A DNA stretch of 64,000 bases from Pelecanus crispus. Lineage: Eukaryota > Chordata > Aves > Pelecaniformes > Pelecanidae. This document shows positions 21,533 to 43,669 of this stretch, piece after piece (the first letter of the stretch is position 1; each line of letters starts with the position of its first letter). Location of the stretch: assembly GCF_030463565.1 (NCBI RefSeq), contig NC_134646.1, positions 60,715,710 through 60,779,709 on the forward strand, written 5' to 3'. Made by a program: the position numbers and the translations under genes. Below the pieces are notes generated by a model. That model was given only the letters and a program-made list of their open reading frames with translations, had not been told where the DNA came from and ran no database searches.

Positions 21533-21538
21533 TTTATT
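21533..21538 (-). terminator. Candidate minus-strand poly(A) signal
   Basis: TTTATT on the plus strand reads AATAAA on the minus strand, followed after about 30 bases by a T-rich stretch (TTCTTGTTTTTGTC). This is a well-formed polyadenylation site about 9 kb beyond the minus-strand recombinase-like gene. No coding sequence is close to it. Confidence 0.4.
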
Positions 21539-21587
21539 CTTATACCTACATATATTCCATATGTCATTCATTATAAACTTGCAAAGG

Positions 21588-21619
21588 GATAGATCATAAC
21601 CTCTCAGTTATGATCTATC
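21588..21619. repeat. Perfect 13-bp inverted repeat with 6-base loop
   Basis: GATAGATCATAAC (21588-21600) and GTTATGATCTATC (21607-21619) are exact reverse complements separated by CTCTCA. It would form a stable hairpin in RNA from either strand. It lies about 50 bases upstream, in the sense of transcription, of the minus-strand AATAAA at 21533-21538. Confidence 0.9.
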
Positions 21620-24600
21620 ATATTTCCAGTCATCAAATGTATCCAATAGTTGCCACATATTGGAGATACAGACAAACATAAGCACACATACACAAAAACA
21701 AGCTTGTTATGTTTGAGATGCTGCATTGATTACACAGCGCTTGTAAAAATAAAACTAAAATCCATCCAAAAGCCTTTTCAATATTAACGATACGAGACTT
21801 TTAACAATCTTAGTATGCCAAACCATTTGGCTTCTTTACATTTGTTCACAAGAAATCTGTTCTGTAATTTTAATCAAAATGTCCCTGATGCAGACATTTT
21901 GTGTGAAGAGAGAGTATTAACATTAATCGTTGTTCATTGATCCGAGAGACTGATCTACAAAACCATGTCTTCTTGGAATATAGTTTTAAGTTGTGGCATA
22001 ATCTATGACAATACGACTCCCAGATCAAACATCCCATTTAACATTTGAATGAAGCTTAAATTTATAGTTAAGCAGTTGTCTATTTTTAGAGTAAGAAATT
22101 CTGCTACGAAGTCGGGAATTAATATTAAGTACGAAGCAGCTTACAAAGATAATTCAAGAAGAGTCGCGGGTGTTTGGAAGTTAGAATCAAGCCATTAACC
22201 TCTCCCAGAACTAGGCTCGTTCCCAGCAAATTTAAAGTTACCTTGTTAGAGTACATCTGCCAGCAGATGGCCCCGTTAGCCAGCCTACTGATCTACCCAG
22301 AAAGTCAGGACGATTTTTGTTTATCACACAAAAATCACATCGCATTTTAATCTACTTCGATTCATTTCGTTGATTATTTGCCTCACATTTGATATAAGAC
22401 AAGTATGGACAAGATGTTCTTTTAGAGAAAAAAAGATAAGCAGAAGGAACAAAACCACTTAGCGGCTGAATCCAGCTCTTGGGTCTGCCTACTATACACG
22501 AGACCAGTCATGAGAGGGTTTCAGGGAGAGCAAATATATATCATTGTCAACAACTGTACGATATGAAACCATATTTAGAGCACAGGCCGCTTCTGCTGAT
22601 GCAGAGAGTGGTTAAGGCCGATGGCACGATATCCAACCCTGCTTCTACATATTTTGTTCAAACATTTGACTTTTTGAGAATGCGTATGGGCTATTAACAG
22701 AGCAGAACATTGCGTTCATGCTTACATTCAGTGGAACAAGAATGTAATGCACTGGTGCACTGAGCTTGTACAACACTCACATGACACATGTAACTTTTTA
22801 CGGTTCTAGACAAACACACATGCTGTTATCAAGACAACATAAAAACCTGAATTGAGTGTACCGCCACGTAAGGGAAGTTTGACTTTGCATGCACTTTAAG
22901 GACAGACTGAAGCGGAGATGACATGGGAGGGATCTCTTTCATATGAAAACTTCCAACTTTAGACATTTATCTTAGCCAAACTATAAGCAAAACAGGAAAG
23001 AAGTGTAAAATAATTTATTTAAAATTTTGTTCTTTCAATTAAATAAATCTTTCCTCTCCTGCCTAAAATAATAATTTGCTCCTGAGGCTGAGGTTTTGAC
23101 ATGTATATTTTTAAAATTTTTTTGTAATGGATTCTTACCCTTTTTTGCATAAAAAGCATTAAGAGTTTTTAAGCCTCCAACTGGAAAAGCTACAGATACT
23201 GTATTATCACAGGCCTTAAGGCCGTCTGTACCATTTATAATCCATCCCTTCATCAGAGAACAATAAAGAAGAACAGATTGGTTTCTAAGCACAGTTTGTA
23301 AGAAGTGTCTCACAGTCTGCTTCTACTTGCCTTCCTGCCAATTTTTCTCCCCAGAAGCTGTTGCATTCACATTCTTCGCAGCATTTGCTACAGAATATTA
23401 TCTTGTGATGGGGTCAAGCAGCACACTAACTCTTCGGAGTCAGACTTCTCTTCTTAGACTGACTGAAGTCTTAACAGCACGGGTAACAACAGCTCTTCTT
23501 GCCGATGGAATAGCCTCACTGTGCCTGCTCTGGAGAAGGAGAATACAGCACTTCATTTAGATGCAGCGTGTTTCTCTCCACCTCATTTTTTCTCACCCAC
23601 TTACTGCCTCCTCCTTCCTTCTCTCTAAAAATCCCCTACCACCTGAAACCAGCACACTCATTCATATTTTCTTCCACCCTGTTGTACACATGGAAGATAG
23701 GAAATACATTAGGAAGCATTCACAATGTCAGGTCATGAGATAATGTAGAATATTAGCCACATTTTCCAGAGATGGGAAATGCTATTTTCCATGTTACAGT
23801 TGGGAGTTTTTCTCAACATAAATTTTATTTGGGTCCACTTACACAGGCAGCTCTGCTGACTACCTCCCAGCACCTGAAGTAGAGAAACCTTTTACCCCTA
23901 GAAGCCTTGTATTATTTAATGTGATCTAAAACACAGCATGTTCATCCTTTTTCACCAGAATGCTTGCAAGCTGACTGGTATTTTATCTGTCCTTGAGAAG
24001 CATTCAGTATCTGGCAGGGTTAAGAACAAAGCTATTTTATAATTTTAGCTATCAGAAAGCTATTTTATACGCAGCTCTTTCTCATTGGGATCATTTCCAG
24101 CTTTGTACCATGCCTTTGAACGGCTGTTCAGAGGATCTGTGCTCTCAACAAGGACAACTTCTGGGCCTAGACACTGTTCCACATCACAGGTTTGCTCTAA
24201 CAGGCAGCCTGATGCTCCAAAACAAACGGGATTAGACAAATACAAGGGTGCAGACAGACTCAAGCATCTTCCTCTTTGTGATCACTCTTGAGCCATGGAA
24301 GACAGCACACTACCTCAGCTTTTGGAAGTAGAAGGAAGCCCCCCAGCTACCACGGCAGGCTGAAGACAACTCTAGGTTCCCCAGAAAGCAATCCCTTCAG
24401 CTTGCGTGCACACCACAAAGAACTGAGATTAAACCGATATCTGAAGAAGCAAGACTGAAGGAGAACAGTTTAGATACTAACTCAAAACTAAAGTTTCACT
24501 CCCTCCAAAATTCAAAAGGGGGTTGGGAACTTACCTTTAAAACACTACCAAAACTCATCATGTTCACAAGAGCATCTGCAAACAGGGTCTAGCATCCCCT

Positions 24601-27600
24601 GAAAACATCCGCTTTCCTGGTAAGCTCACATCCACCTTGCAACACAGAATATGGTGCATCTAAACTTCTGTGTTCTTATCTGAATTCCTCAGAGTTTAAG
24701 AGTTCCCTACAAAGAGCTAGACTAATGCTTTGCACTAATACAGTGCAGCTGGCTGAAAAGGCAGCATGCCAAAAGATGATGAAGACAAGAAAAAAAAAAA
24801 ATGCAGACCATAATGTATCAACCGAAACTTTAACTGTGTTTTCAAGAAATTCACAGAACTCCAATCGCAAGATGACTGCTAAAACACTATTCATACATGC
24901 TACTTCACCAGTGTTGTATACAATTTTACTTACAGTGTAATACAAATCTCTTTGAAAAAGACACTAAGCAAACATTTATATTGCAAAATTTGGAATTATC
25001 CAATTGTTTCTACTCCATCCAATCACACACATCAATCTACCCAAGTGATTTCTCCATGTTCCCAGAATTTCGAGGAACAAAACAAAAATACTGCTTTACT
25101 CAGAGTGCAAAATACCCACCTTGGCAAACCACTCCAAGGGCAAGTTTTTTCTAAACCAAATAAACTAGCTTCCAAGCTTACAAATATTGCAGAGCTGCCC
25201 ACTTTAAAAATATCAGAGCAACTACATGGGGGAGGACAACACTAAATTATCACAATGCATTTGTGCCTGAACAAAGCTCCCTGTGGGATAAAGCAAGCAG
25301 CAGCTACTCATCTCAAGGGAAAATAAATTTTGATAAATCATGGTTTTAGCTACTGAAACATCTTATGGTATGTGGGTACTGACATTCTTTGGAATGCCCT
25401 TGCACAAACACAGCTACATTATGCTAAGGACTGAGCAAAAAAATTTCCTCTTGAGCAAAATACAGTAGTAAACTTGCAGTTTTATTCAAACTCTGCAACA
25501 ACAACATTCTGGCACCACAGAATCATTTAGATCCTGGGGACAAAGCACCCCCATCTCAGCTGAAGACAGCATCCCTTGTCTTAAGCATCTCTGAGCACAG
25601 TGGCTGCAGATCGGTCAAGGGAGGCAATATTCATACCCTTGGTTTTCATTTGCAAAATTCTAAGCGATTGTCCAATGCCAAGATATTGGTTCCTTCTTTT
25701 CAACCCACAACAAATGCATTGAAATGAAGGCTTAGTACTTCCAAGGGAAAAAAGTTTAAGTGTTAATATAGGGAGTCACCACCAAGAAACACCCTTTTCT
25801 TCGGTTAACTGGGCTGAAAAAAAAAAAAAAAACAAACACCCAACTTATTTTGCCCATAAAGACAAAGGATTTGCCATCTGGAAGTGTTAGCCTACAACAC
25901 TGATCTGAATTTTACAGGCTTAATAGCTGCTATTTTTCAAGTTCTGTGGAAGGTGATATGAGGTATAAAAGCTGTTAAGGCCAAAAAAAAATTGTGCTTT
26001 AACATTAAAACGCTACTACGACCACACATTATACCGGGTTGGTTTGTGTGCTTTGGAAAATGTTTGCTGCTTGCCTGCCAACAATTGGCAGGGGGCTGTG
26101 AAGTATCTTTGCCAATTGCTCGGCTGCCTTTAGCTTAAGAAAGGGCATTTTATTCCGAAACAGAACCAAGATGTTGGGGAAAAGGCAAGAGGGACTAGTG
26201 CGCAGCTTATAGCTATAGCAGAGCTATGAGAAGACAGACTATCCTACAATCATCCTGTGGTTATAGCTTTTGGGAAATGTATATAGAAGTGCAAAAGCCA
26301 GTTCCTCAAACTGATGTCAAAGAGCTAGTATAAGAACATTGCTAGAACTTGGAACGATTTTAGCAACAAATTCCATATTGGCTTTACTCCTGGGCTCTAG
26401 CAAAAAGCAGCTTATTACATTGCCATTTCAGAGAGCTGCTCCTAATCCAATGGTATTAATGACCAAGGTACAGTCAGGTCTGGACTCCAATGGATAATTC
26501 ATTTTTTCTTAGTGGGAAGCTATACATAAGGAAAAAAGTATGGGATGTGGTACATGTTGCTCTCTAACTCCTTCCCTTCTGCCAGTACTTCAAGGCAATG
26601 TAAGTAGCAAATAATACACTGTTACGGTTAAGAAACATGTTGCAGAGAATGTCTTGGAGAATGAGATGGCAACACGTTATGACATCTCACTGGAAGAGAT
26701 GATTCAATGAGCCAGTAGCATTGGGTGCATTCGGCACTATATTAATGCTTCTAGCCAAACTTGCATCACAACATGTAAAACAGAGCCTTCTTCACTTTGA
26801 AAAACATTGCTTTTCCTTTAGATACCTTAAAATAAATGTACTTTTAATGGCTATACATCTTCCAAGTTTGCAACATTAGTAGTTACAAACCTCCTGAGGA
26901 GGTATGACTTAAGAATATGAAATGAAACACCTTCAACAGAAAGCCAGAGCAGGGTAAACAGAGCATTGGCATGTTGTGCCCAGCATGTGGCTATTAGAGC
27001 TGCTGCAGAATGTCAGTGTCCTCCTTGCTATGGAGTAAAACAATCAAGTCTCCTCAACGTACGAGTAAACACCACAACTGATGGATATACATAGGTAGAA
27101 GAAAGAAGTCAAGGTGACTAAAAAAGACTTTTAAGTACCCAAAATGCACTTTGGGGATGTTTCAAGTAATAAATCAATGGAACCCATCAATCTTTAAGGT
27201 CTTCTTTTGCTAGTTACTTCCCATCCAGGTGCTGGTTGCAAACAAGAAACAAAAGTATGGGAGATGCAATTGCTTGCATTTGCAGATTGTTTCAGAAGGT
27301 CTCCTCAGCACTTCTTATAGCACAAATAATTCTCTATATTAACCACTGAAAAGACAACCCTAAGAGGTTTAAACGCATTTGCCTATTTATCCTTAGTTTT
27401 CTGGATTTGGGTCTTCGTTACCAAAGGACATTGAATGCTGCTTAGACTAGCAGGGGATGGTTTCATTCTACAAGCAAGAAGTATTCATGGATCTTGGTGT
27501 GAAACCTGACAAATACCTGATTCAGTTACCTACTTCACTTTCAGTAGATGTGGAAGGAAGGCATTTCTTGCAAATTTTGCCCATTTCAGGAACATGAACT

Positions 27601-30600
27601 CCAAGGTACAATCTCAACAATGAAAATTTTAGCTGTGTAAAGGCATACACTTTATACTTGATTAATTCGTACTGTAGTACTTAATGGATAACATTATTTC
27701 TGTCATTCTAAGGAATATGTATTTGATATAAGCATTACAATCAGAATAGAATCAAATGCATACCAATCAGGTATACAAAGAAAGTTTTGGGTTTTTTCTA
27801 ATAAAAAAATACAACTAATCACTTCCCCTTTATTCTTGAAGAGTATAATCACTTAAATTCAACAATTACACATTGTAGAAACTGTAAGAGTTCAAGCTTC
27901 CACATGAATAATGATTCACCAGTATCTCCACATAATACAGCAAGTTCCCACAGCAATGATCAGTATTACAAGAGTAATTTAGCTCTTTCTGGAGTCAGTA
28001 TGCTTAGCCTTTCACCCTTAGCATGACAAAAATGTGTGAAATCATTAATTAACATTGTAAGAAATAATTGTGAGTTGAAAAAATTCCCTATTTTGCTTCT
28101 TAAAGTGAATACCGTTCTTATATCCCCTTCTGCTTCTATTCAGGATCTTTAAAACAGTTAGCTGGAAAAAAACTTGCAAATATTAATTTGTTATAAAGAT
28201 AACCATTTTGGGATTCTGAGCTGATGAGATGTGAAACTCCTAACATTCAGGAGAAAACGGGTCTCACTTACTTACCAACTGTCTCAGTTTTATTTCCCGG
28301 TAAAAGACCTATGACTCCAACAAGTAATTATAGATCAAGCACTGCATTTATAACCTTGTTATCTGAAAATATGCCAGCCTATCAAAACAGGGCTTTTTAA
28401 AAAGCTAATTACCTCTGTGATGGCTGTTCCTTAAAACCAAATCGTCTCTTATTCTCAATGCTGGGATCACAATTCAGTGAAGTTGAATAATTACAGCTGA
28501 TTCTTCATCATCTCTCCAGCTACTTCCTAGATTTTACTTCCACTTAGGGGGTACAAGACCAAAATCTCTGGCTACAGCTACAGAACGTAGGTAGAAATAA
28601 GAACAAAGGTAATTCTCTTCTGCTTCATGTATCATACACAGAAATTACAGATAAGACAGACATCCATTTTCCCAGTATAGCAGAGCAATCATCATGGCAT
28701 TTATTTGCCAGATACCAGGTTCCCCAGAAGACAGACTTACCTCTAAGCTTTAAAAACAGCACACATATTAAAGGTGCTAGCATTAATACAGCCATTCCTG
28801 TCTTACTAGAATATCCATTTACACTCTAAACCTATTTGCAAGCCTTTCCTGTCTCCCCATTTGGGAAGCACAATTTATTGCTGAAATCAGTTAAGTGGGA
28901 GAGATCTAGCAGGGAGTTAAATGGTCAGGCACATCCACTGACCTGTTCTTGTACTGCGTTCATTTTGATACCTCTCAGGTCTGTAATGCTGGTGCAGCTA
29001 CATTGATCTACTTGTATAGAGGGCTAAAGACAGGGAGGGCACTTAATCACTGTCACAGGTAAACAGACTCAACTTGGGAAAAAATAATTTATTGCTAATT
29101 AAAATATTTGGGTACTGGGAAACAAAAATATGAACTGGGCAGCCCCTTACCTCTTCCTACAGAGGCCACCCCTGCAGCCCCCTCTCCCTCCACTACCAAA
29201 ACCACACCACACATAGCCAACACAGACCTTCCACAGCAAAGCAACAGACAGTACTAGAAGCCGGCATGCCTGGGTACAGCACAAGCCAGCAAGCAGACAC
29301 ATCACATACACAGGGGACAGCAAAAATCCATCAAAGCTTCCACAGAGCAGTTCCTTTTGCAGGTATGTTCCAAGTGTCTGCTCAGCCTAACCAGCAGCAG
29401 CAGCTGGTGGGCACCTCTGGGTAAGTTCCTGGGCAGATGCTACATTTACATCACCTTAGCTCTATTTACACTTTGATTTCATGCACAGAAACAGAAATTA
29501 CTATACAAACAAGCATTTCTAGTGAACAAAGCCACACAATGAAAAAAGACAGCTTTTAGCTGCACTGCAGTTAAAACAGAGATCTCAGATATGGTCATAA
29601 CCACAGAAGTCTTGCTGCACTGTAGTTAATTCCCACAGTGAGCACAACACCACTCTCGTAGTAAAGAGTAGCAGATTGGTGCTGCCCTACATAGACAGTG
29701 TTAATTTCTACTCAACAGAAGTCTCAGAAATCATGGCTAATTATCCACATGGAGATCAAGCCAGCATTAAATTTCAGCTAGCTCCCACATTTCTGTAACC
29801 CTTAGTTTTGTTAGAAAAGGGCACAGGCCAGAGTGAGATACAAAACTAGCCTGTTTAACAATAATCATGGTCCAGGTTTGGAGCAGTGATTGTCATCAGG
29901 GTGATCAAAAGGCTTCCTCACCACAATTCTCAGCCAGAGGACTGTCTGACTCACCAACTCCCTTCCCAGTCCAGCCATATGGTGAAAAATACATTCCACC
30001 ACATGCTATCAAAGTACTACAAATGCTATAATAACAAAGTTAGAAGTACTCAAGCCACTGTACTTTATGATTATGGTTGAAAACTCCTCAATTTTAAAAA
30101 GTAGTTTAAAATTTGGGAAAAAAGAACAGGTTGAATTAAGGACAGCAAGTATCACACCCTAAGGAAATCATTAACTGTTAAGTGAACCTGTGCTATTTGT
30201 TATTTAAAATACTGATTAGGCTAATTATGCTCAGAGGTAATTGGGTCTAGAGGATTAAATGAAAAATTTTCAGAGGCAGAGTTTGCCGAATAGAAAAGCT
30301 GCTGTCCCCCATTTAAACAGTACAAGATATCACTTTTAACATTTTATGAATATCAGTGTTTTAAAAAGCTCATCCTTTGGTGCCTGCTTTGGGGTTAATA
30401 ATGTAGCTTGTATTTCCCTTTTAACCTTAGTGACATATGTTAGTGTTAAAAAGTGTACAGCTACACCAAAAAGATACTACAATTTAACCACCTCCTGGTT
30501 TACAATGATTACCTTAAAGTCTCAAGAGTTTTCCTTCAAAACTTCAGAGTCTGCTTGTAATTCATGGCTCTCAAAGCCAAGACTGCAATTTCTTCTGGGT

Positions 30601-30651
30601 AAAGAGCAACAATATTACTAGTAGGCAGAGACTGTTTTTAAAAAGGAAACA

Positions 30652-30657
30652 TTTATT
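30652..30657 (-). terminator. Candidate poly(A) signal of the minus recombinase-like gene
   Basis: TTTATT on the plus strand gives AATAAA on the minus strand about 275 bases after the stop codon at 30932-30934. It is the nearest canonical signal downstream. Confidence 0.5.
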
Positions 30658-30931
30658 AATTCACACTATATAAAACTGCAGCCTCGCTCTGTCAAGACAG
30701 ACAGGCAAGGTCCACACACAGCAGATTTGATACTCCCCCACTCTCAACGCTACGGACAGCACAAGTGGCAACTGTGAGTGAACTTCAGAGATCACCCCAC
30801 TGTGAGGCAGAAAATTCACTACAGGTGTTAATACTAAATTACTGTCAAAGACTAGGAACTACACAGTTAGAAGCCAACTCTACAGAAAGAAGGTAATTCA
30901 TTAGCTTCTCTTGTCACATTGGTCTCCATGC

Positions 30932-31848
30932 CTATGGTCTCTCTGGGATCATACAGGGCCATCTTGCCAGGCGAGTGATGTCTTCCCCAGGATAGCCGCA
31001 GCGTGCAGCGGTGACGGCAGTCCCCAGCCAGAAGGAATGCACACCATACAGCTCCGGGCACAGCCCCAGCAGCTGCAGGGCCCATCGGAGGACAGCCAGG
31101 AACTCCCTCTTCGTTACAGCTGTATTATCTGAGTGCATAAAGAGTGGCCCTTCCAGCTGTGAACGAACTATCACATAGCTCCGGAGGGCCAGAACAGGGC
31201 ACACCCATGGCTCTCCAGACAGCCCAAGGCTGATGACATGTCTCTCCTGATCCAGAGAAGAGTTGTGCAGACAAAACACCACTCTCCTCTCCATCAGCTG
31301 GAGGTCACTCAGGTACAGCAGCTCAGGCTGCAGTATATCACAGTGCTTCACCACCATCTCACCTATTCGAAGTGCCCCAAAAAAAGCTACAGTAAATAAT
31401 GCATGAAACAGTAAGCGTTCATAATGAGTTATACATACAGACTCCAGAGTTCCTAAGAGAGATCGCAACACTTCAATTGTTATAGGCAAGTATTTATCCC
31501 TCAGGATGCCGGCTCGACGTTTCAACCCTATCACCATGCAACAGGTTACAGGATCTTCCAGAGGATCAGGGTTACCAGTCAATTTTGATAAATAAGACAG
31601 TGCTGCCACATACATCAGTGTCTTTGAGGATGAATAAAGGGATTCCACAGCCAAAAACCCTCTAACTTGCTCCTCTGGAATTGGCCAGGCTGCAGGCATT
31701 CCCATGCTTTTCCTAAAGACAAGGAATTTCTTCAGTCCTTCGAGGTAGGCTTGCCAAAGCCTAGTATCCCCTGAGCACTCCAACAACGACAAAGTCTTCA
31801 GAGGCCAAGGTCCCAAAGAATGTTTCCAAGGACAACTAAACTCCCTTC
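30932..31848 (-). CDS. Minus recombinase-like gene, exon 2
   Basis: The acceptor TTTTTGTAG|GAAGG follows a T-rich tract, and its two leading bases complete the Gly73 codon. The exon encodes residues 74-377, all of the recombinase-like domain, and stops at TAG (30934-30932). The exon is far less GC-rich than exon 1. Confidence 0.88.
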
Positions 31849-32594
31849 CTACAAAAAGAGGATCCACATTAGCACATGTTGACAACAAGCACAAGCATGC
31901 CACTTAAGTAGGAGTAAAGACAGCGTTTCTCAGTGCTCTGCTAGTTTATCCCATTAAAGGCACACAGCTACACCCAGAGCTGTTAAAGAACCGAGATATT
32001 TTTCAAATGGGAAACTGCAAGCAGCATACCAGGCCCATTTCAGGCACTAGATCTGGCAACAATCTGGGAATTTACTAGTTTGTGGAGTAGCAACAGAGAA
32101 GACAAGCAAAAAAGCAATTTTAGAACCAAGTTTTTCTGGCATGGCTTACAGAAATTACACCTGCAGAGGGCACAGAGCATGCTCCCGCCGGAAGGCAGCG
32201 TATTTCCCAGCCCAGGAAGAGGAATTCCTTCGAGGCCTCCCTCCAAAAGCTCCGGCCTCACACAAGAACTCGAGCAAAGCCAAGGAAACGCTGCCCGGCA
32301 GGAGCCACGGCCGCCAGCGATCCGCTCGCCCCCCGCCCAGAGCCAGAGGCCAGCCCCCGGCCACCGCCCGCACTCACCAGCCGCCGCCGCGCCGCGCTCC
32401 CCGCAGCTGCTGGGGCACGCCACCGCCTCCGTCCTACGCGCTGCTCCTCGACTGGAATGCGAGAAGGCGGCTGCTCGCCTAGCAAGGCCCAGCTCCAGCC
32501 ACTCCATGCCTGGCTCCCGGGCCAGCAGCGCCAGCATCTCCCAAAAAGGCGCGGCGGCGACCGGCTGGGCCGCAGCACAGGCACTGCGGGCCAT
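30932..32594 (-). CDS. Domesticated tyrosine-recombinase-like protein, minus copy (two exons)
   Basis: Exon 1 (32594-32378) and exon 2 (31848-30932) join in phase 1 into a 377-residue frame. Residues 1-72 are an N-terminal part with the motif FWEMLALLAREPGMEWL (17-33). Residues from about 94 on follow a phage-integrase/tyrosine-recombinase plan closest, by recall, to the C-terminal recombinase of DIRS/Ngaro retroelements. A SAM-like core-binding region (about 100-190) is followed by the catalytic domain, with box-I Arg233 in FFGALRIGE, His343 of HxxR, and the ARW motif ending at Trp369. The second catalytic Arg is Trp346 (HSFW), and the protein ends eight residues after Trp369, before any catalytic tyrosine. 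Strand exchange should therefore be impossible; DNA binding may remain. A paralogue lies head to head at 33890-35436. Splicing is predicted, not observed. Confidence 0.85.
32378..32594 (-). CDS. Minus recombinase-like gene, exon 1
   Basis: The start ATG at 32594-32592 has a strong context (GCCATGG) and lies 46 bases after the TATA box, so I chose it although the frame stays open upstream. The exon encodes 72 residues plus one base and ends at a consensus donor (GCTG|GTGAGTG). Base composition is very GC-rich, as part of the CpG island. Confidence 0.75.
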
Positions 32595-32639
32595 GGCAGG
32601 AGGTCGCCACAAAAGCAGCCAGCGCTGTCCCACGGGCCC

Positions 32640-32722
32640 TTTTATAGCCGCGAGCCGCTCGCAACGCCCTCCTCCCATTGGGTATCGGGAGCAGCCCCGG
32701 CGCCCCGAAGCGCTGCCATTGG
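32640..32722 (-). promoter_or_regulatory. TATA and CCAAT promoter of the minus recombinase-like gene
   Basis: On the minus strand CTATAAAAGGGCCC gives a TATA box at 32646-32640, 46 bases before the ATG. Two CCAAT boxes lie upstream at 32681-32677 and 32722-32718, with GC-rich motifs beyond. The predicted 5' UTR would be very short. Confidence 0.65.
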
Positions 32723-33745
32723 CTGCCCGGCCGGGCAGGGGTGGGCCCCTGCCGGCGGGGCGCGGCGGCGGGTGTGAAGCGGCCGGTAGGGAGGGGCGGC
32801 GCCGAGAGCAGAGGGCGAGGAGCCGGGCCTGGCCCCCGAAGTGGCGGGCGTGAACCTTACGGGCGTTTCTTACACCGTCTTCCGCCAAAGCCTGAAACAT
32901 GACTGGATTTACTGATGAGGTTAGAAGAGAGAAGGACTTGTGTCACCTGGCTGTCGCTCTCCCGGGCTGAGGAATGCTTCCTAGAAAGCTGCCTATACCA
33001 AATAGCTCAGGGCAGCTGACTCCATTCTGATTTACTCATCAGTCCTTCTTTGCTGTTAATTACAGATAACCCACCTAGATATTTTGTGCACAGTTTAACG
33101 AGATAGCCACCCTTCCGCGGCAGCTCTCCCTGCTGAATCCCAAGGTGCAATAAAGCAAGCAGGCTCCACAACCAACAACTCAACCTTTTGGCTTGGTACT
33201 TCCCTGTGCGCCCTCATCTCCTTTGGGGTGCCTTCAGAGCCCACTTGCTCCACGGAGAAGGGAGCCCCGTACCCCGAGGGCTCCTGGCCGCACCGGGCAG
33301 CAGCCGCCCCTGCTCGCTGGCAGCCCTGGGGCCCGGCCTGGTCTCCCTCTGACCAAAGCTGTGCAGGGACCCCTGGCCCTCATCCGGTCCTGTACCGCGT
33401 TCGTACCTCCGCCTGCTGCAGGTTGTCTCATTTTAGCAACAAAACGGCGCAGGTTTGAGGCGGGGGCGAAAGAACACGGCCAGGGCCTAAGGCGGTTAAG
33501 TCACACAGCAGAGGCGCACCCGCGGGCACGCCCTCTGTCACCGCCTGCTCCTTCTTTAGCCCCTAATTGCAGCGCAATGAAGGCGATAACGGGCCGTTTA
33601 GCTCCAGGCAGTGAAATCCCATCTTCCGGGCGACTCCCGGCCCTGCCCGCGGGCGGCCCCGGCGGAGGCGGCCCCGCTGCCTCCCTCAGGCACCGGCTCC
33701 GCCGCCGGGCGGGGCGGGGCGCAGAGCCACGCGGCTCGCTCCGCG

Positions 33746-33817
33746 ATTGGATAAGAGCGGGGCGCGGGCGGGCGGAGGACGCTCCGATTGGGTAGAAGGA
33801 AGGGCCAGCCAATAAAA
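33746..33817 (+). promoter_or_regulatory. CCAAT and TATA-like promoter of the plus recombinase-like gene
   Basis: Inverted CCAAT boxes (ATTGG) at 33746-33750 and 33787-33791, GC boxes around 33760-33775, a direct CCAAT at 33809-33813 and an overlapping TATA-like AATAAAAGGG at 33811-33820 lie 75 bases or more before the ATG. The layout mirrors the minus gene, including two inverted CCAATs about 40 bases apart and AAAAGGGC after the TATA, which suggests both promoters descend from one. Confidence 0.6.
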
Positions 33818-33889
33818 GGGCAGCACGGGGGCACTTTTGAGGAGTTGGCGCTTCGCACGTCTGGGTGTGCGGGCGCCATTTTGTTGGCG

Positions 33890-34055
33890 ATGCAAAGCAG
33901 TGGGGTCGAGCTGTCCGCACCCCCTTCGCACTTCTGGGCGTTGCTGGAGCTACTACAGCGGGAGCCGGGTATGAAGTGGTTGCTGCGTGGTCCGACTGAC
34001 TGTGCTGAACTGTGGGGTCCCGGTGGAGTGGAAGCTGGCAGCAGGGGAGGAGCTG
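33890..34055 (+). CDS. Plus recombinase-like gene, exon 1
   Basis: Starts at the ATG in GGCGATGC, the first in frame after the promoter. It encodes 55 residues plus one base and ends at a consensus donor (GCTG|GTGAGC). The phase is the same as in the minus gene, and the Asp56 codon is completed by the next exon. Confidence 0.7.
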
Positions 34056-35436
34056 GTGAGCGTGGCCCAGAGGGGTCGGCTGCATGGTGGGGGAGCTTGG
34101 CAGAGGCTTGGCAGGTTCTTCTGTGGGATCTGATCTCTGTGCTGAAATACTTCTGGGATCTGTGTGCACTGCTGAATCTATATTGCTGTTGTGTAGCTTT
34201 GTTCCTCTCAATCCCATGTGCCCCTTGGTGGAGGTCTGGGGTTGCAGAAAACCTTGATGTAGTCTGCTGGGTCTGTCACTAGGCTTGAGGTGTTGCTTTA
34301 AAGAGAAAAATCACTGGGGTTTTTATGTTTTTTGAGGTTTTAATTCTTTTCCTGTGCTCTGGCTGTTGGAAGCTGTGCAGGTGAGCATCATAAGCATGCA
34401 AGGGACAGGCTTTTTTCAGAGAAGTTCAAGCAAAAACTGAAGCATGTTGAAAGGGAGGAAACTTTTGTCTGATTATTGTCTGTGAAACTGCCTTGTTTGC
34501 CACTGCTAATGTAGATTTCTTTTAGCAGATGAACTCAACCAGGTTCCTGAGAAGCATCCCTTGGGCCCGTGCCCCCTGAAGGCTCTGCTCTTACTGGAGG
34601 ACTCAGGAGACAGCCACTTATGGCAGGTCTACCATGAGGGCCTGAAGAATTTCCTTGCCTTTAGAGAGGGCATGGCTCTCTCTGCAGCCTGGCCAATTCC
34701 AGTGGATCAAGTGAGAGAGTTCTTGGTCATCATGGAGTCTCAGGATCTGCCTCCCACAAAAATAATAATGTATATGGAAGGACTGTCCTTCATCTCCAGA
34801 ATGGTAGATCATCCTGATCCTCTTCAAGATCCTGTTATCTGTCACATGATATCAAGGCTGAAACATAGGACTAGCCCTTCAAATGATAAATACTCTCCCG
34901 TAACTATTGAAGTGTTAAGATCTCTCCTGGGGACTCTGGAATCTGTGTGTAGCTCTCCTTATGAGTGTGTATTGTTTCGTGCCATGTTTAATGTAGCTTT
35001 TTTTGGGGCACTCCGTATAGAAGAGATGGTGGCAAATCACAAAAATACAGTACAGCCAGAGCTGCTGTACTTGAGTGACCTCCAGCTGACTGAAGGGGGT
35101 GCAAACCTTTGTTTGCATACATCTCATATGGGCTGGGAGAGGTTTTTGATCCAACTGAGACTATCTAAAGAGATGTGGGTATGTCCTGTTGAAGCTCTCC
35201 GTATCTATGTGGCAGCACGGCCACAGGGAGAGGGCCCTCTCTTTGTGCACTCAGACAATACGGCTGTGACAAAGAGGGAGTTCCTAACTGTCTTCCGCCA
35301 TGCTCTTGGGCTTGCTGGACTTCCTCCAAACCAGTATGGTGTGCATTCCTTCTGGTTGGGGACTGTTGTAACAGCAATATGTCATGGGTATTCTGATGAA
35401 GCTATTAACAGAATAGCAAGGTGGTGGAGATCCTGA
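33890..35436 (+). CDS. Domesticated tyrosine-recombinase-like protein, plus copy (two exons)
   Basis: Exons 33890-34055 and 34529-35436 join in phase 1 into a 357-residue frame, by eye some 55-60% identical to the minus copy over the recombinase-like domain. The N-terminus has FWALLELLQREPGMKWL (15-31), matching the other gene. The domain shows Arg218 in FFGALRIEE (the usual Gly after the Arg-hydrophobic pair is Glu), His328 and Trp331 in HSFW in place of HxxR, and the ARW motif at 353-355. The frame stops three residues later, so no catalytic tyrosine is present. The shared Trp means the loss of the Arg came before the duplication. Family by recall: phage-integrase fold, DIRS/Ngaro type. A function as a DNA-binding or regulatory protein is a guess; loss of recombination activity is a firm inference. 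Confidence 0.85.
34529..35436 (+). CDS. Plus recombinase-like gene, exon 2
   Basis: The acceptor TTCTTTTAGCAG|ATG has a good pyrimidine tract. The exon encodes residues 57-357, starting ELNQVPEKHPLG, aligned to REFSCPWKHSLG in the other gene, and stops at TGA (35434-35436). No frameshift or internal stop is present. Confidence 0.88.
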
Positions 35437-35702
35437 AGAAGACATAGTTCCATCTACCTGTTGGGCTTCCATAGTAAGGGGTATCTTCTGCAATGCAGAA
35501 ATTTTATACTTTACACAGACTAAAGTTTCAATGCTCTGTAAAGTTACAGAGAAGGGGAGTAACTAGTACAAATGATTTTTCCTGCCTGGAATGGTTTTGA
35601 GACTGGAGTGTCATCATTTTAAAACTGCTGTGACTTGTGGGTCAGTTTGCATGCTATTCAGCATGTCTGTTCTAATTGTATTTTGACCTTGTGTAATCTT
35701 AT

Positions 35703-35708
35703 ATTAAA
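35703..35708 (+). terminator. Candidate poly(A) signal of the plus recombinase-like gene
   Basis: ATTAAA about 270 bases after the stop codon, followed by T-rich and GT-containing sequence. The distance matches that of the candidate signal of the minus copy. Confidence 0.45.
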
Positions 35709-38700
35709 CTGCATTTTCTTTCAAAACTTCTCTAGTCTTTCTGTTATGCCCTGGTCAAAGGCTTTTCGTCACAGTGGTGACAAGATAACTTGATACAAGC
35801 ATGCATCCTTTTTACTGTCTAATGGAATGAGAAGTAAAGCTAGCTGATGGCTGGTGATTGGAAGCTGCAAATGTGGAGGGAATTTAGCTGCTGAGTGTGA
35901 CACTGGCAGGGAAGTTGACCCAGTTGTCCAAGTTGAGGTTCCATAGCAGCTGCATTCAACCTCAGTCTCCTTACGTATAGAAGCCTTCCCGTTGATGGGA
36001 ATCCCTAAGGATCCTTTGCTGATCCCTCTTCAAAGGATGTACCAAACCTGGATACTGACCAGAAGTAGCCTTTAATTGAAATGTGGCTAATGCATCAAAG
36101 ATGACACTGCTCAGTTCAAAGAGTCCTTTGTAGCAGAGAACACAAGAGATAGCTAACACAAATAATCCTCATTCTGTAATTGGAGCACTTGTTAAAACAA
36201 AGACTCTTAATACAGATAAAATAACTACTATCTAAGAAGCAGGATCATAAGAAGGTTGAGTGTCAACTTTTGTAACAAGGGTGTCTGAAGTAATGGCATC
36301 CTCCATAGTACATAACATCAGTGTGTTCAGGCGCTACCAAGGTGGCAACTAGGTATACAGGAAACAGGCAGCATCATACTGCACTTTTCAATACTCAATC
36401 TAGTTTCCCAAAAGGCTCTTTAGTTACAGAAAGTTCTTGCTCTGCTCTCCATGCAGAGCATGCTGCAAAGACAGAGCTGTGATAGTAGACAACAATCTGT
36501 TAACTCCCTGGCACAGATTTGGTAGCTCCCCTTCTACAGCTTTACTACAAGCTGTTGCAGTATTAGCATGCTGTGATGCTGATACAGAGTCCCAGTCATC
36601 TTGCTCATGTTCATGAATGTGAAGTGGTATGTCGGAGTGGCTAGAACTCTCTCTGTGACTGCAAGGTAATCGGTTTAGTTAAAATATGCACATGCAAAGC
36701 ATGCCAGAGGAAGCAGAGGTCTTAGGCTGGGTGATGAGGGAGAGAAGGTAGAGTTTGGCTCACCAGCCTTGGTTATTGAGAGAAGGCGGGGAAAAGGCTC
36801 GCTTCATGAAGACTTTGGTTTATTGTGAGAACGTAGGGGGTCTTCTAGGTCACTATTAAATGCTTTACTCAAGAGGGAAAGGGGATCTGTTAGAGGAGGA
36901 GAAGCAGGATTCTGCTTTGTGCATGATGGTGGGGATGGAGCTGACTGCACTGGCTCAAGTGTTTGTGGGCATGACTGCTCGGCCTTACACTGTGTGATCA
37001 CACATGGAGTCCTGGACTGCTCTTTCGTCCTGCAACTCGGGTGTTGGCATGTGGCAATGGCAGGTTGGAGGAAGGCAGCCGGAGGACCTGTTTTACTGTC
37101 TCTTGTGCTACCAGAAAAGAAGTAATTACATCAGAGAAGTGTAGCAGGCTGCAGTAACCGAGACAGCATAGGGAACAGCAACCTTGAGGCTGTCCATGGG
37201 TGTGCAGTTGAAAGTTCATTCCATCCCTGCCCAGCAGGTCTCTGTTAAAATCCAAGTGTGAATTGATGATCTTTTCAAGACATGAGAAGAGTGCTTTTAG
37301 CTACAATGATGGCAAATGCTCTCATTCTACTGTTCTTTAGTTTTCTGAGAGGGAAGGGGATGCTGGCCTGTCTCAGGTAGGAACCAGGGTATTCATGGCG
37401 GTAACAGTGATGATTTCACACTAAGAATCAAAAAGAGAAATGCGCTGTCTCTCTGTATTGATGTAATTACAATTCACCTAAGAGATGGGCCAAGAAAGTT
37501 TACAGAGCTCACTATAGCCAACTCAAAGTCAGGAAAGCATCTCTGGGTGTCCCCAGTGGTGATCTCCGTGATGCCAAGCAAGCAGGGAAGAACAGCGTGG
37601 AACTCACAAAAATTGGCTGAATGCCACTGTGCAGAGCAGCTGTCCCACCGTGGTTCCTGGTCAGCTCTGTAAGCAGTTCCAAATGGCCATGGTTACTTTT
37701 CTCCCAACAGGGGAAAGAGCTCCTGAACAAATGCTTAAGGCTGTGCTGCACCTACAGGTTCACAAGTCTTTTCTCAGGAGCAATCCCAGCTTACCATAAG
37801 CCCTTTCTCATCCACTGCTGTTGATTCCCTCCCTGTGCCATCTCCCTCAGACAGCATGCTTTGCTTGGCTAAACCTGAAGCAAATATAGAAACAAACATA
37901 GATTAAAAATAATCAGATTAACTTTATCGTGTAGATCTACAAAAAGCTGTCTGTACTGACCCAGCTGAGGCCAAATAAGAAAATGGCATAGGTTGGTTCT
38001 CCTGCCAGAAAGTTTTCATCAAATTACATCCTGAAAACACCTCTGTGAAATAGCCTTCCTGGGGCACTATCTTCCTACAGTGCAACCACCCATAGTTTTA
38101 ATTGCTGTGTATCCCGAGGCTAAGTTACTGCAGCAACAACTCCTGGATAACAAAGCCAGGCAAGGGAAAGGAAATTACATCAATTTAACTGATGTGTTGT
38201 TAAAACTTCCAAGGAGCTTTCCCTGCTGGGTTGCTAAGCGTTGTGCACATCATAGGGACAAATCTTTGCATCACAGCTTAAAAAATTCTGTAATCCATTG
38301 GGTACAACAGCACTGAAATGCAGCCACTTCCTAATGAAAGGGAATCAATTGACAACTTAAACAGCCAAATTTAAGCTTGTTTTACCCTAGCAATGTGACC
38401 AGATAGATGCAGGTAGATACTTTACTGATAGATACTTGTCTTTTCTTTCCAGGCTCAGTCTGTAGTGGAGTGGGGCAAAATCATACATAAACATGATCTG
38501 CAAAAAAAGTCAAGGTAAACTAATGTAAAGACTGGAGGTAGCAAGCAAACTCCTTATGGAGATCAAGTCTTAGACACCATATCCTACCAGTTTGGACTTG
38601 GAGAGCTCAGACCTTAAAATTATTAAAGCCTTTTGTGTTATTTCACACTTGCATTTTGCACTGAGTATTTATAAAGATACCTAATACTCTTGAGCCACAA

Positions 38701-41700
38701 ATTTCAACAGTGTTATGTAGACTGGACCCCAATATCCAGTACAAGCCACTCATTTAGATTTACTCAGCTCTTTACTTCCTGGCACGTTCCCCTCATTCCT
38801 TTGGAAACTCAGGTTTACTTTAAGACTAGATCAATTTGAAACCATCTCAGCTTGGCTTTCACAACAGCACACTGTGGCATTAGCTGCCCGGTCACTTCAT
38901 GGCACACCCCATCCTCTCACCCCCAGTTGCTTGGCAGCGTGTGCTCTCCATCCTCACGCTACAGGCACTTTGTACAGTTTGTTTGTTACTAACCTTTGGG
39001 ATGAAAGCCTTTAGGGGGTTAAACAGCAAAAATCATAGAGGATTTTTGTGAAAATGCACTGTTGTTGGTCATGCAATAGAATAAACCAGCAATGTAATAT
39101 TAGTGACCGGTATACCCCATGCGCAATGTCTAAGAGAAATTTAGCAGTAAGTTAGTAGGTCACAGAGTGGGTTCTGCAAGTGCCCAGACTGCACCCTTTT
39201 GACGTAATTGGGCAGCTTCACAAAAGCCCACTTACTACAAACCAAAATGCTAAAGGACATTTAGGAGACACATCCACTGTGTCCTGAGAGCCGCTCTGCA
39301 CTGGCTGGCGCTCACAACGAGCGGCAGCGTGAGCCATTCAGGGTATGGGAGCTTGTAAGCCAATGCCATCCTCCTGCCTCAAGCAGGCTCAGCCCTCAGA
39401 GCCATCACTTTCTGCAAGACTTGCTAACTGCAGTTGCCCGTACAGACACCTGAAGGGAACTAGGGATGAGGCCAAGTGACAGTGCAGAGCACTCCAGACC
39501 CTGCTGCAGCCACGCAGGTCACCTGCTGCTTTCACGGTCAGGACGGAACCGGTGGGCTTGGTGCACTGCAGACCAATATCCATCCGTGCATCCATATGTG
39601 CATTCACACATGCATTCATTCATCTATGTATCTGTGCATCAACCCAGAGGGGTGGGTAGGAGATGACATTTGGAGGGTTAAGAGCTGTCAGACTCAGCTG
39701 GGCTTGCAAGACTCAAGGGATGGCTTTCATGGGCCACCGGTATTGTTCCCACCAGGGTCGCCAGTGCTAGAACTCAGACCTGCTTATTGGGCAAACAGGA
39801 TGCATGGAAAATGTACCAGATTTAGGCAGCTTGCCAAAAGTTGCCTGTGCTTTTACTGGGCCTGTTACAGAGAAATTTAAAAGAGGCAGGACAACTTTTT
39901 CTGAGATCATGACGTTTAAATGTGCCCCAGTTTGGCAAGCTGGCATTTTGTTGGAGGAGAAGAGCTGATGAGTGAGGCACAGGCAGTGAACCATGCGCAG
40001 TGGGTAGCTGCTGAAAGGAGGAGGAGGCAAAAACGTTTAACTGCTTGTCCGATCAGGCATTACGGGCTGCCCCTCTTGGGCTGGCTGCACTTGGCTAGGC
40101 ACGGGTGCAGAGCCTGCACGTTCCTGGTTCCTGTGCTCGGGTGTTGACCTGCCCTGGGCTTTTGTCATGCAAACCACATGTCAAAGAGTGCAGAGGGTAC
40201 AAAAGCAGCCAACTGCTCCTCCTCATGAAGCACTACCAAGCTATCCCTTCAAATTAGAGAAATGCAAGGTCACCGTTTCAGCCAAAGACGTGCTAGCACG
40301 CCGTGCCTCCACACCGAGGCCAACAGCCCCACGGCCAGTGCCTTGCGGTATGGGGTACGAATCACACACAGTCGTTCTGTTGCAAGTTATTTTTTCCAAA
40401 TTCTTGTCGGCCAGTAAACGAAATGCACCTCCCAGTGAGCTGGCAGCGCACAGCCGGTTGCAAAAAATGCATTTCACAGCAGCCTGCCACCCCACGCCCC
40501 TATCTTGGCCATGCACCTGGTGAAATGACACAGTGAGTTGACTTGAATTTAAACCGGTGTACTGAATATCACCTCCTGACCTGTTGCTATATGGCTGGAA
40601 ATTTAATTTGGGGCTTTTCTTCGTACAGCCCGAGTGAACACAGCCTTTTTGGCAGGTGTTTCCGGCACAGAAAGAAAACAGGCCCCTGTGGTTAAGCCGC
40701 GTAGTTTACTTCAGCTCGCTCGCCAATTGGCGCCGAGCGCAAGCGGCTCCCCCACCTTATCTGAGCCCTTGTGAAAAAACTCCAGAACCAGGAGAGGATT
40801 TTAACACCCAGCGCTAACCTCAGTACTTGATGTTACCCAAAGAAGGTAACTTTAAAAAAAAAAAAAAATTTACTTGGTTTTCTGTGTTAGTGGCTGCAAA
40901 AGCTGAGCTAGGGCAGTGGTGTGGCGGGAGCCGCCAGCGGCTCCCATGCCCAGGAGAAGCTTCCCAGCCTCCCCTGGCCCCTTGTGCCCATCCCCATCGC
41001 TGGAGTTGCTCATCCCAACCTGAAAGGAAGTGTAGCTACCTGCCTCCTTTCCACCAGGGAGACTGAGGAAAAACAAAGACCTCTGAAGGCTCCTGAAGGA
41101 AAATTGCAGAGCAAAATTAAGCTGAAAAATCCAGTGATGGAGTGTGTGGTGATACACCCATGGCCAGAGCACAGCCAAGGCCAACGTGAGTGCAGGAAGC
41201 AAAGAAAGGCTTCCGGGGCCAAAGATTCAGGGTCATGCCTATTTCCACACCTCCAACAATACAACAAGCACTGAAGGTAGTTCAGCTTTTTTCTTCCACA
41301 AAATTTCCCCACCAGGTCCTGAAGAAGCAAGCAATAATCTTTTTTCTTGTTTTTGTGTTTGTGGCTACAAAGCCCTATAAAAGGGGTTTGGGTGCCTACT
41401 GATTTTAATTGAGGTATTGGCCCCTAGTTGAAGATGTCACCTTGAACACGCCAGCTCCCGTGTCTGCCAGTGGTCCCTTCCCCTTGCGGTTCTCCAGGGC
41501 AGACCCAGTGTGCTGCCTCTGAGTCAGCCTGAGATGGCCAGGACTGTGGGGAAGCCTGCAGGCACACGGTTTGTGGCTGTAAGGTTTCTCAGCCACTTGA
41601 TTTTCCTATTACATATGCACAGAAACAGCTTTGTTTTGACAGCGTAGGTATCTTCCTCACACCTCTCCTCAGCCACCATCCAGAAACAGGGTGTTCCTCT

Positions 41701-43149
41701 GTCTAAGAGCATGGGTGCATGAAGAAATTAATTGATGGTGTGAATTTACAGCATGTCATTTATTCCATGGTAACTACCCATGCGTACACACTCCTATTCA
41801 GCAAAACACAAAGTAAAAAGGTGTCAATGACTTCACCCTTCATCAAAGAGCAGGAGCATTCACACAGAGGTATTTTAACCGAGCACCTTCCTCCACCCAT
41901 AATCTTTGCCTTACTTCTGACCTAATCCACTCAAGGAGTGCATCTCTTCTTTTCAGGCAATTAGCTCCCTGGCAAAGATAAAGCTTTCATGTGTCCTTTA
42001 ATCAAATGATCTGTCCCTAGTTTGGAATGTCATGTTTGTGTTCTGCAGTATAGGACAGAGAAGAGCTTCACTCCTTTCAAATGGGAGCATGGTCAGGGTG
42101 CCATTGAACAGGACCTGTTATCTCCCACTTAACAGGACATAAAAGGACCCAGCAGCCAAATGCTTTTTAGTGTAGGACTCAGACTTTCACAGACTTATCC
42201 AGTGGCTTTATTTATATGATGGTGTTTCTCCACATCGTAGGTAGGAACCAGCATTTAAAATTCAGAAGAGAGTGAGATTACACGGCCAAGAGCTCTCGTT
42301 TTATCTTTAGACTTAGAGTTGTACACTTGCAGTTGATCAGGCTGGCTGAGTCAAAAACTTCCTGGTCACATTAATTTATGTGAAACAGCCAATTATCGGT
42401 CACCTTGAGCCCAATGGCATCTCATCAGCTTCCCAGTGGCATTTATTTGTGAAGGGAGGTGACAAATGCTGGGAATGCCAATGATAAACTTCTCAGTGAA
42501 ATATTTTTTGTCCTGAAATCTCCATCCAAGGAATACTCCAGGTGAAGTTTTACCTAAGGACTAGTGAATGTTAAAGGGAGAAAGTACTGTTTGCTGTATG
42601 AGGATATGCTGCATTGCCTCCCAACAGGGCTGGAGACCACAGAACAGGGGAGGTGTCCAGTAGGCAGAAGCCAGTGACTGTCATTTGTTACTTCTTGGTA
42701 TAGCTAATTAAGATGCCAAAATTAGTATAATTTGTAACTGCATACTGGACATACTTTATAATTAAAAGCATTCCCAAATCATAGCGGTGGCACAGCACAG
42801 TGGTCTACAGATGTGCACAGTAAGGGAGGGGGAGGTCCGTCTGATACCAAAGGAGGGACCATGCAACTGAGAGCTTCTCCCTCTTCTCTCATTACATCAT
42901 TCTGATGAAACACAGGAGTGTGCCCTAATCTCACCAAACATTTTATATAATAAACATGGTCTGGCACGCAGACAGCAGAGGCCTTCTTATTTCACTGCAG
43001 TCTCCTTGAACGGTTTCTTATGTGTGTGGACCTCAGAGGACAAGACCTAGGCCTTTCTGTATGCACCTCCCTTTTCTCCTCCATGAAGGGGATAACAGAG
43101 TGTGTGGGAGAGCTCAGCTCCTCTCTGAAGGCACTAAGGACTGAATATA
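35709..43149. other. Non-coding interval
   Basis: No recognisable gene. GC-rich patches near 39.3-40.5 kb and 40.9-41.2 kb give overlapping short frames on both strands with no family resemblance. A short segment near 42.0 kb resembles one near 46.8 kb. Confidence 0.55.
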
Positions 43150-43669
43150 CCCCACCTGGTGTACTGTGTTCAGCTCTGGGGCCCCCAACATAGGGAGGAC
43201 ATGACCCTGTTGGAGTGAGGCCAGAGGAGGGCCACAGAGGTGATCAGAGGGCTGGGGCACCTCTTCTATGAAGACAGGCTGGGAGAGTTGGGGTTGTTCA
43301 GCCTGGAGAAGAGAAGGCTGCAGGGAGACCTTATAGCAGCCTTCCAGTAGCTGAACAGGGCCTACAGGAAAGCTGGAGAGGGACTTTACAAGGGCATGTA
43401 GTGATAGGACAGGGGGTAATAGCTTTAAATTGAAAGAGGGTAGATTTAGATTAGATATAAGGAAGAAATTCTTCACTATGAGGGTGGTGAGGCACTGGAA
43501 CAAGTTGCCGAAAGAAGCTGTGGATGCCCCATCCCTGGAAGTGTTCAAGGCTGGGCTAGATGGAGCTTTGAGCAACCTGTTCTAGTGGAAGGTGTCCCTG
43601 CCCATGGCAGGGGGTTTGGAACTAGATGATCTTTAAGGTCCTTTCCAACCCAAACCATTCTACGATTAT
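43150..43669 (+). mobile_element. CR1 LINE 3' fragment
   Basis: About 520 bases closely resembling the 3' part of chicken repeat 1. Diagnostic segments are TGTTCAGCCTGGAGAAGAGA, GATTTAGATTAGATATAAGG, a CACTGGAACAAGTTGCC block and the 3' end ACTAGATGATCTTTAAGGTC leading to CCATTCTACGATTAT. The element is 5'-truncated, as nearly all CR1 copies are. It keeps no intact protein frame and has many substitutions, so it is old and immobile. Confidence 0.95.

What the first reader, a model, noticed from the sequence alone, without database searches (positions are those of the whole stretch)
30932..35436. Head-to-head pair of domesticated tyrosine-recombinase-like genes
Two intact two-exon genes encode proteins with a phage-integrase/tyrosine-recombinase plan, in inverted orientation around a CpG-rich region between CHRNA9 and RHOH. 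No reverse transcriptase, terminal repeats or other mobile-element parts adjoin them. Full-length frames, matching intron position and phase, and organised promoters point to host genes taken from a DIRS/Ngaro-like element and then duplicated. I know of no named vertebrate gene with this description at this locus.
Basis: partly seen in the sequence, partly recalled or inferred. Interest (0 to 1): 0.9.

Follow-up and report, generated by a model that had tools for sequence, protein, structure and literature searches.

The report
Paired genes from a dead recombinase
Two neighbouring bird genes descend from a mobile-DNA enzyme that lost its cutting residues and appears to have been kept as an ordinary gene by birds, crocodiles, turtles and lizards.

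Summary
Two intact two-exon genes lie head to head around a CpG-rich stretch between CHRNA9 and RHOH: A (minus, 377 aa) and B (plus, 357 aa), both with phase-1 GT-AG introns at the predicted junctions.

They belong to an unnamed family: 91 database proteins; the named ones are from birds, a crocodile, turtles, geckos, python and bearded dragon. They are tyrosine-recombinase (YR) homologues: a family profile hits a canonical YR (P0094) at E=1.8e-25; profile comparison with XerD/XerC/P0095 gives 2.3e-11, against 0.19 at best in 30 shuffles.

The active site is dead: Lys in 0 of 87 rows, second Arg in 1 of 83 (Trp 77), Tyr in 0 of 36. A versus B exon 2: dN/dS 0.29 (0.20-0.40), so the protein is constrained. 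The tree fits one sauropsid gene duplicated on the bird stem.

A DIRS/Ngaro source is plausible but unproven; Pfam's Crypton-type model does not match, but neither does any Pfam YR model. Transcription and structure were not tested. Most likely function (inferred): a non-catalytic nuclear DNA- or protein-binding factor.

The parts
32378..32594 (-). Gene A exon 1, starts ATG, carries the FWxxLxLLxxEPGMxWL motif
   Evidence: GT donor after 32378, phase 1; motif shared with crocodile, turtle, gecko and python proteins
31849..32377 (-). Gene A intron
   Evidence: GT...AG, phase 1
30932..31848 (-). Gene A exon 2: degenerate tyrosine recombinase (core-binding part plus catalytic-fold part), stop included
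   Evidence: homology
30652..30657 (-). Candidate polyadenylation signal AATAAA of gene A, 275 nt after the stop
   Evidence: consensus match only
32639..32646 (-). TATAAAAG upstream of gene A
   Evidence: consensus match only
32677..32722 (-). Two CCAAT words 41 nt apart upstream of gene A (32677-32681, 32718-32722)
   Evidence: consensus match only
32000..33999 (.). CpG-rich region with exon 1 of A, the shared intergenic stretch and most of exon 1 of B
   Evidence: CpG obs/exp 0.58-0.93 in 400-base windows
33746..33818 (+). Upstream words of gene B: ATTGG 33746-33750 and 33787-33791 (41 nt apart), CCAAT 33809-33813, AATAAAAG 33811-33818
   Evidence: consensus match only
33890..34055 (+). Gene B exon 1, starts ATG, same motif as gene A exon 1
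34056..34528 (+). Gene B intron
   Evidence: GT...AG, phase 1
34529..35436 (+). Gene B exon 2: degenerate tyrosine recombinase, stop included
   Evidence: homology
35703..35708 (+). Candidate polyadenylation signal ATTAAA of gene B, 267 nt after the stop
   Evidence: consensus match only

Best explanation
A and B are paralogous host genes of a sauropsid family made from the tyrosine recombinase of a mobile element. The YR frame became one large exon 2 behind a small exon 1 and a CpG-rich promoter region. The recombinase lost the catalytic lysine, the second arginine (now tryptophan) and the tyrosine nucleophile, so it should not cut and rejoin DNA, while the rest of the protein was kept under purifying selection. 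On the bird stem the gene was copied in inverted orientation. How it works (inferred): the two-domain YR fold acts without catalysis, as a nuclear DNA-binding and self- or partner-associating factor, with the exon-1 FW...EPGMxWL stretch as a recruiting motif; A and B may pair. Shown: gene structure, homology, loss of catalytic residues, constraint, spread. Inferred: expression, DNA binding, partners, source element.
For: Gene structure. YR homology: profile hit to P0094 at 1.8e-25; hhalign 1.4e-19 with P0094 and 2.3e-11 with XerD/XerC/P0095 against 0.058 and 0.19 at best in 30 column shuffles each; with P0094 in the profile, the 16 PDB sequences at E<=10 are Cre (15) or Tre (1), best E 0.15, weak. 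Active site on one alignment of 93 family rows, gaps set aside: Lys 0 of 87, second Arg 1 of 83 (Trp 77, Cys 4, Gln 1), Tyr 0 of 36; kept: first Arg 63 of 89, His 74 of 84, Trp at the third position 48 of 53. Constraint: dN/dS 0.29, bootstrap 0.20-0.40. Spread. Tree of 28 rows rooted on squamates: birds A+B 96/95, A 100/100, B 100/100. Exon-1 motif: 7 invariant columns in 10 sequences that I picked, gecko to bird. No reverse transcriptase, YR or other mobile-element Pfam domain in 10 flanking frames taken from the 30 (four have only matches below the Pfam cut-offs, to unrelated families).
Against: No transcript was seen. Exon 1 is recognisable in 37 of 91 database proteins and in none of the unannotated (lgn, jgi, ena) ones, which are single open frames. 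The profile that found P0094 (A3) was chosen by me from five sequences; the earlier, larger profile A1 found no outside YR. Without P0094 the family finds no YR in the PDB, and Pfam gives no YR domain in the window proteins, 7 relatives or 17 alignment members. DNA binding is doubtful for B: its exon-2 product has net charge -5 (gull B -5, hummingbird B +5), Pogona -2, python -10 (untrimmed), while window A is +2 and six YRs compared are +2 to +18. One gull A copy has Arg at the Trp column. B loses its C-terminus in several passerines, guineafowl and a parrot and the first Arg is His or Cys in 23 of 89 rows, so B may be relaxing in some lineages.
Confidence: 0.82

Rival explanations
1. The genes are a fast-evolving branch of the Crypton-derived (DUF3504) genes rather than of a DIRS/Ngaro or other YR.
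For: Crypton-derived genes are the YR domesticates that Kojima and Jurka describe in animals; they too lost the tyrosine and second arginine (PMC3212892 section 10). The only recognisable domain of animal Cryptons is the YR (same section), which would explain the lack of RT or GAG beside the genes.
Against: No DUF3504 match in the two window proteins at E<=5, in 7 relatives at E<=1 or in 17 members at E<=10, though these do not match PF00589 either. The nearest outside relative, P0094, matches PF00589 and no DUF3504. No DUF3504 sequence was compared directly.
Confidence: 0.2
2. The proteins are still active site-specific recombinases.
For: First Arg, His and the third-position Trp are mostly kept.
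Against: Tyr in 0 of 36 rows that reach the column, second Arg in 1 of 83, Lys in 0 of 87; B of the window ends before the Tyr position.
Confidence: 0.02
3. A recent mobile copy or a decaying remnant that only looks like a gene.
For: B is truncated at its C-terminus in several passerines, guineafowl and a parrot; a 17-nt direct repeat lies outside the pair.
Against: Relatives from geckos to birds, intact frames, dN/dS 0.29, no long terminal repeats in 29500-37000.
Confidence: 0.04
4. The A/B duplication is older than birds and one copy was lost separately in crocodiles, turtles and squamates.
For: Geckos also have two copies (Paroedura, Gekko kuhli), and the long outgroup P0094 roots inside bird A.
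Against: The gecko copies fall inside a squamate clade at 100/100, not with A or B. With the squamate root birds A+B form a clade at 96/95. The P0094 root rests on an end branch of 3.59 changes per column.
Confidence: 0.12

Closest known systems
Crypton-derived DUF3504 genes (KCTD1, KIAA1958, ZMYM2/3/4, QRICH1, WOC)
   Same: Domesticated YR in vertebrates; catalytic Tyr and second Arg lost (PMC3212892 section 10).
   Different: There the YR is part of much longer proteins in jawed vertebrates or bilaterians; here it makes up most of a small gene whose named members are all sauropsid, with no DUF3504 match, His mostly kept and Trp nearly fixed at the second Arg.
LAP2alpha domain of TMPO and ZNF451
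   Same: Vertebrate gene part taken from a tyrosine-recombinase retrotransposon (DIRS1-like) and carried on one large exon (PMC4495291, passages).
   Different: Derived from ORF1/GAG, mammal-specific and fused to existing genes; here the YR itself was kept.
Active YRs: XerC/XerD, Cre, and P0094
   Same: Collinear core-binding and catalytic-fold parts.
   Different: Those have the R-K-H-R-H/W-Y site; this family lost K, second R and Y.
ATF7IP intronic Crypton of birds
   Same: YR-derived frame conserved in birds (PMC3212892, passages).
   Different: Different locus, inside an intron of ATF7IP, frameshifted in chicken and turkey.

Membership tests
Tyrosine recombinase superfamily (by descent) | Significant profile similarity over core-binding and catalytic parts | tested here: met
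   shuffle control
Tyrosine recombinase superfamily (as an enzyme) | Catalytic R-K-H-R-H/W-Y residues | tested here: not met
   Lys 0 of 87, second Arg 1 of 83, Tyr 0 of 36
Pfam Phage_integrase PF00589 | Match above the curated cut-off | tested here: not met
   No hit for A, B, 7 relatives or 17 members of A5; P0094 itself passes
Crypton-derived DUF3504 genes | DUF3504 domain match | tested here: not met
   No hit; a very diverged member is not excluded
DIRS/Ngaro retrotransposon | Reverse transcriptase, RNase H or GAG frames beside the YR | tested here: not met
   10 flanking frames (of the 30) without such Pfam domains; no [FY]xDD word in stop-free frames of 80+ codons at 20000-30900 and 35450-50000
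DIRS/Ngaro retrotransposon | Inverted terminal repeats with internal complementary region, or split direct repeats | tested here: not met
   Repeat search 29500-37000, 16 nt and longer; only a 17-nt direct repeat, 30529-30545/35714-35730, lies outside both genes
DIRS/Ngaro-derived gene (by descent) | YR groups with DIRS or Ngaro YRs in a tree | not tested
Host gene | Relatives in distant lineages and purifying selection | tested here: met
Host gene | Spliced transcripts | not testable with these tools
   No RNA data; 37 of 91 database proteins carry exon-1 sequence joined to exon 2 in gene models

The most novel reading that the evidence does not exclude
This is a domestication, in the sauropsid ancestor, of the recombinase of a non-Crypton YR element (DIRS- or Ngaro-like), kept in birds, where such elements are reported absent today. 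It became a stand-alone, catalytically dead DNA-binding factor whose two bird paralogues form a regulatory pair from one CpG-rich divergent promoter region.
Probability: 0.35. Interest if true: 0.75.

Novelty: new variant of a known kind. Interest (0 to 1): 0.62.

Why it matters
The domesticated YRs of vertebrates that I found in print are Crypton-derived parts of larger proteins (PMC3212892), and the DIRS-derived vertebrate protein domains that I found in print are GAG-derived (LAP2alpha and ZNF451; PMC4495291, PMC5753468 passages). A sauropsid, stand-alone, YR-only gene family with a near-fixed Arg-to-Trp change would be a further and different case. Because birds carry two divergent copies, while one was found per crocodile or turtle species, it can be tested genetically in chicken or zebra finch. 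It would also record an element type that bird genomes no longer hold. In the named genomes it sits unnamed, as LOC entries or hypothetical proteins.

Tried and rejected
Rejected: active recombinase (catalytic columns); recent mobile copy (spread and repeats); chance frames. Led nowhere: two degenerate DNA patterns for HSFRxGxAT-type YRs (motif recalled) in viral contigs, 0 matches each; tblastn of the crocodile protein in phages, 2 matches at E=10 to tape-measure proteins; P0094 in viral contigs and genome contigs, no relatives, which fits a eukaryotic origin of P0094 but does not show it; PHROGs, one match at 0.46 to a family of unknown function, and NCBIfam, none; exon-1 profile against the PDB, 0 hits. 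The profile search with long N-termini reached no outside YR; a trimmed five-sequence profile did. The root by P0094 was set aside as a long branch. My regex for the first Arg was wrong and was replaced. In one search the 'A alt isoform' line is meaningless because the searched word is absent from A. In one search the python protein was not trimmed to exon 2.

Literature: 0 papers with 'tyrosine recombinase' and RHOH; 0 with any of six LOC names of the family. No title or abstract start on a bird or sauropsid YR-derived gene among those listed (7 of 7; 25 of 75; 7 of 7; 15 of 27; 15 of 137; 3 of 3; 10 of 66). The library holds only open-licence papers. What I saw: PMC3212892 abstract and outline, sections 10 and 16 and passages; PMC4495291, PMC9004415, PMC9210276, PMC7786948 and PMC5753468 passages only; all others search listings only.
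Full report
What is there. Two genes stand head to head between CHRNA9 (PDB alpha-9 match) and a Ras-family ORF that I recognise as RHOH. Gene A runs on the minus strand from 32594 to 30932, gene B on the plus strand from 33890 to 35436. Each has a short first exon and one long second exon, a GT-AG phase-1 intron, and products of 377 and 357 aa. The starts are 1296 bases apart in a CpG-rich stretch. Both have TATA-like and CCAAT-type words upstream, with two CCAAT or ATTGG words 41 nt apart in each, and a candidate poly(A) signal 275 or 267 nt after the stop. These are consensus matches only. Stop-free frames of 323 and 308 codons exceed 300 simulations per region, whose largest were 213 and 188.

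Surroundings. The repeat search of 29500-37000 shows inverted homology inside the genes and only short pairs elsewhere. One 17-nt direct repeat (16 of 17 identical) lies outside both genes at 30529-30545 and 35714-35730; I take it for chance but cannot exclude a trace of an old event. Ten flanking frames, of the 30 listed, have no mobile-element Pfam domain, and no [FY]xDD word occurs in long stop-free frames of 20000-30900 and 35450-50000.

Family. Three protein searches gave 91 database proteins of the family besides the window's two (81, 2 more, 8 more). Named sources are birds from ptarmigan, guineafowl, hummingbird, owl, parrot and songbirds to gulls; Crocodylus porosus; turtles Macrochelys, Gopherus and Lepidochelys; and squamates Paroedura, Sphaerodactylus, Gekko, Python and Pogona. 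Others come from unnamed assemblies. Labels are mostly 'uncharacterized' or 'hypothetical', with a few 'putative tyrosine recombinase' or 'Tyr recombinase domain-containing'. In the searches with a limit of E=10 no mammal, amphibian or fish name appeared, but only 8000 candidates were scored in each, so absence there is not proved. Models named as Rho-related or RhoH isoforms in Limosa and Pogona suggest that the place beside RHOH is shared by a shorebird and a lizard (inference from names; the proteins listed are YR-like only).

Ancestry. Pfam finds nothing in the window proteins and no YR or DUF3504 domain in 7 relatives or 17 members. A trimmed five-sequence profile finds P0094, a PF00589 protein with the full YR site, at 1.8e-25, P0095 (PF00589) at 3.4e-6, P0096 (SAM-like matches below the Pfam cut-offs only) at 2.1e-5 and P0097 at 0.69. 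hhalign of a 17-member family alignment gives 1.4e-19 with P0094 and 2.3e-11 with XerD/XerC/P0095. Thirty column shuffles of each target gave 0.058 and 0.19 at best. A profile that includes P0094 finds 15 Cre sequences and Tre in the PDB, at weak E-values of 0.15 to 0.6. Profiles or proteins without P0094 find no YR there.

Active site. On one MAFFT alignment of the 93 family rows and P0094, rows with a gap set aside: first Arg in 63 of 89 (His 18, Cys 5, Gln 2, Gly 1); Lys in 0 of 87; His in 74 of 84; second Arg in 1 of 83 (Trp 77, Cys 4, Gln 1); Trp at the third position in 48 of 53; Tyr in 0 of 36. Rows include both paralogues and fragments and are not independent, and the tail columns are the least surely aligned. 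The Trp is also in crocodile, turtles, geckos, python and Pogona, so it was probably there before these lineages split.

Constraint and history. A against B in exon 2: dN 0.30, dS 1.04, dN/dS 0.29 by NG86 (bootstrap 0.20-0.40), 0.31 by LWL85 and 0.36 by YN00. In a tree of 28 of the 93 rows, rooted by me on squamates, birds A+B form a clade at 96/95, A at 100/100 and B at 100/100; the order of crocodile and turtles is open. In the tree of 45 family rows with P0094 the gecko copies fall inside a squamate clade at 100/100, so theirs is a separate duplication. That tree roots inside bird A on an outgroup branch of 3.59 changes per column, and its bootstrap had not settled; I do not trust that root. 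The simplest history is one gene in the sauropsid ancestor and an inverted duplication on the bird stem.

Exon 1. It carries FWxxLxLLxxEPGMxWL, with seven invariant columns in ten picked sequences from geckos to birds. It is recognisable in 37 of 91 database proteins (32 long, 5 short form), all of them annotated gene models; 54 do not show it, many being fragments or single open frames. P0094 aligns with exon 2 only. So exon 1 looks added to the YR, with the whole YR on one exon, as expected of an inserted element frame. No PDB or Pfam relative was found.

How it works. Cutting and rejoining is made very unlikely by the missing Tyr, Arg and Lys. What selection keeps is the rest of the protein. 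Kojima and Jurka argue for DNA binding or protein-protein binding for Crypton-derived YRs (PMC3212892 section 16), and the same argument applies here. Exon-2 net charge is +2 in window A, +6 and +11 in two other A copies, +1 in crocodile, +4 in two turtles, +9 and +8 in two geckos, but -5 in B of the window and of the gull, +5 in a hummingbird B, -2 in Pogona, and -10 in the untrimmed python protein. A is therefore the better DNA-binding candidate, and B may serve as a partner. I put non-catalytic DNA or protein binding in the nucleus at about 0.6 and A-B pairing at about 0.25; both are inference.

Source element. In print, DIRS elements are reported absent from birds (PMC7786948 passage; PMC5753468 passage; PMC9210276 passage), DIRS and Ngaro protein fossils older than the amniotes are reported in human (PMC9004415 passages), and DIRS-derived domains in LAP2alpha and ZNF451 come from GAG (PMC4495291 passages). 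Kojima and Jurka report that DIRS and Ngaro YRs do not match DUF3504. This family does not match DUF3504 either. That leans towards a non-Crypton YR, but without named DIRS or Ngaro sequences I could not test it.

Not done. Structure prediction and genome searches did not complete (calls listed in Tried and rejected). No transcript, synteny in other genomes, or orthologous DNA was available.

Noticed in passing
P0047 (Chroicocephalus ridibundus, A copy): The one family row with Arg (HSFR) at the second catalytic arginine, of 83 with a residue there. Reversal or error not distinguished.
   Followed up: partly
B copies P0011-P0017, P0021-P0023 (named) and P0018, P0020, P0028, P0030, P0032, P0035, P0039 (unnamed): B ends 9-24 residues after the start of the HSF motif in several passerines, guineafowl and a parrot, so the last helices are missing or frameshifted.
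   Followed up: partly
window 33890-34055: B exon 1 holds a second in-frame, phase-1 GT after base 79 (...REP); models of Mycteria and Grus B, and of three A-like proteins, have a short form, though window A has no GT there.
   Followed up: partly
Paroedura picta P0084/P0087, Gekko kuhli P0092/P0093: Geckos have two copies listed with one contig length each, grouping with squamates and apart from bird A and B.
   Followed up: partly
P0094 (329 aa, unnamed 4218-base contig): Canonical YR with HSFRIGAAS...LGRW...YIR, nearest outside relative found; host and element unknown.
   Followed up: partly
window 30529-30545 and 35714-35730: 17-nt direct repeat (16 of 17 identical) just outside both genes; chance or an old trace not distinguished.
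   Followed up: no
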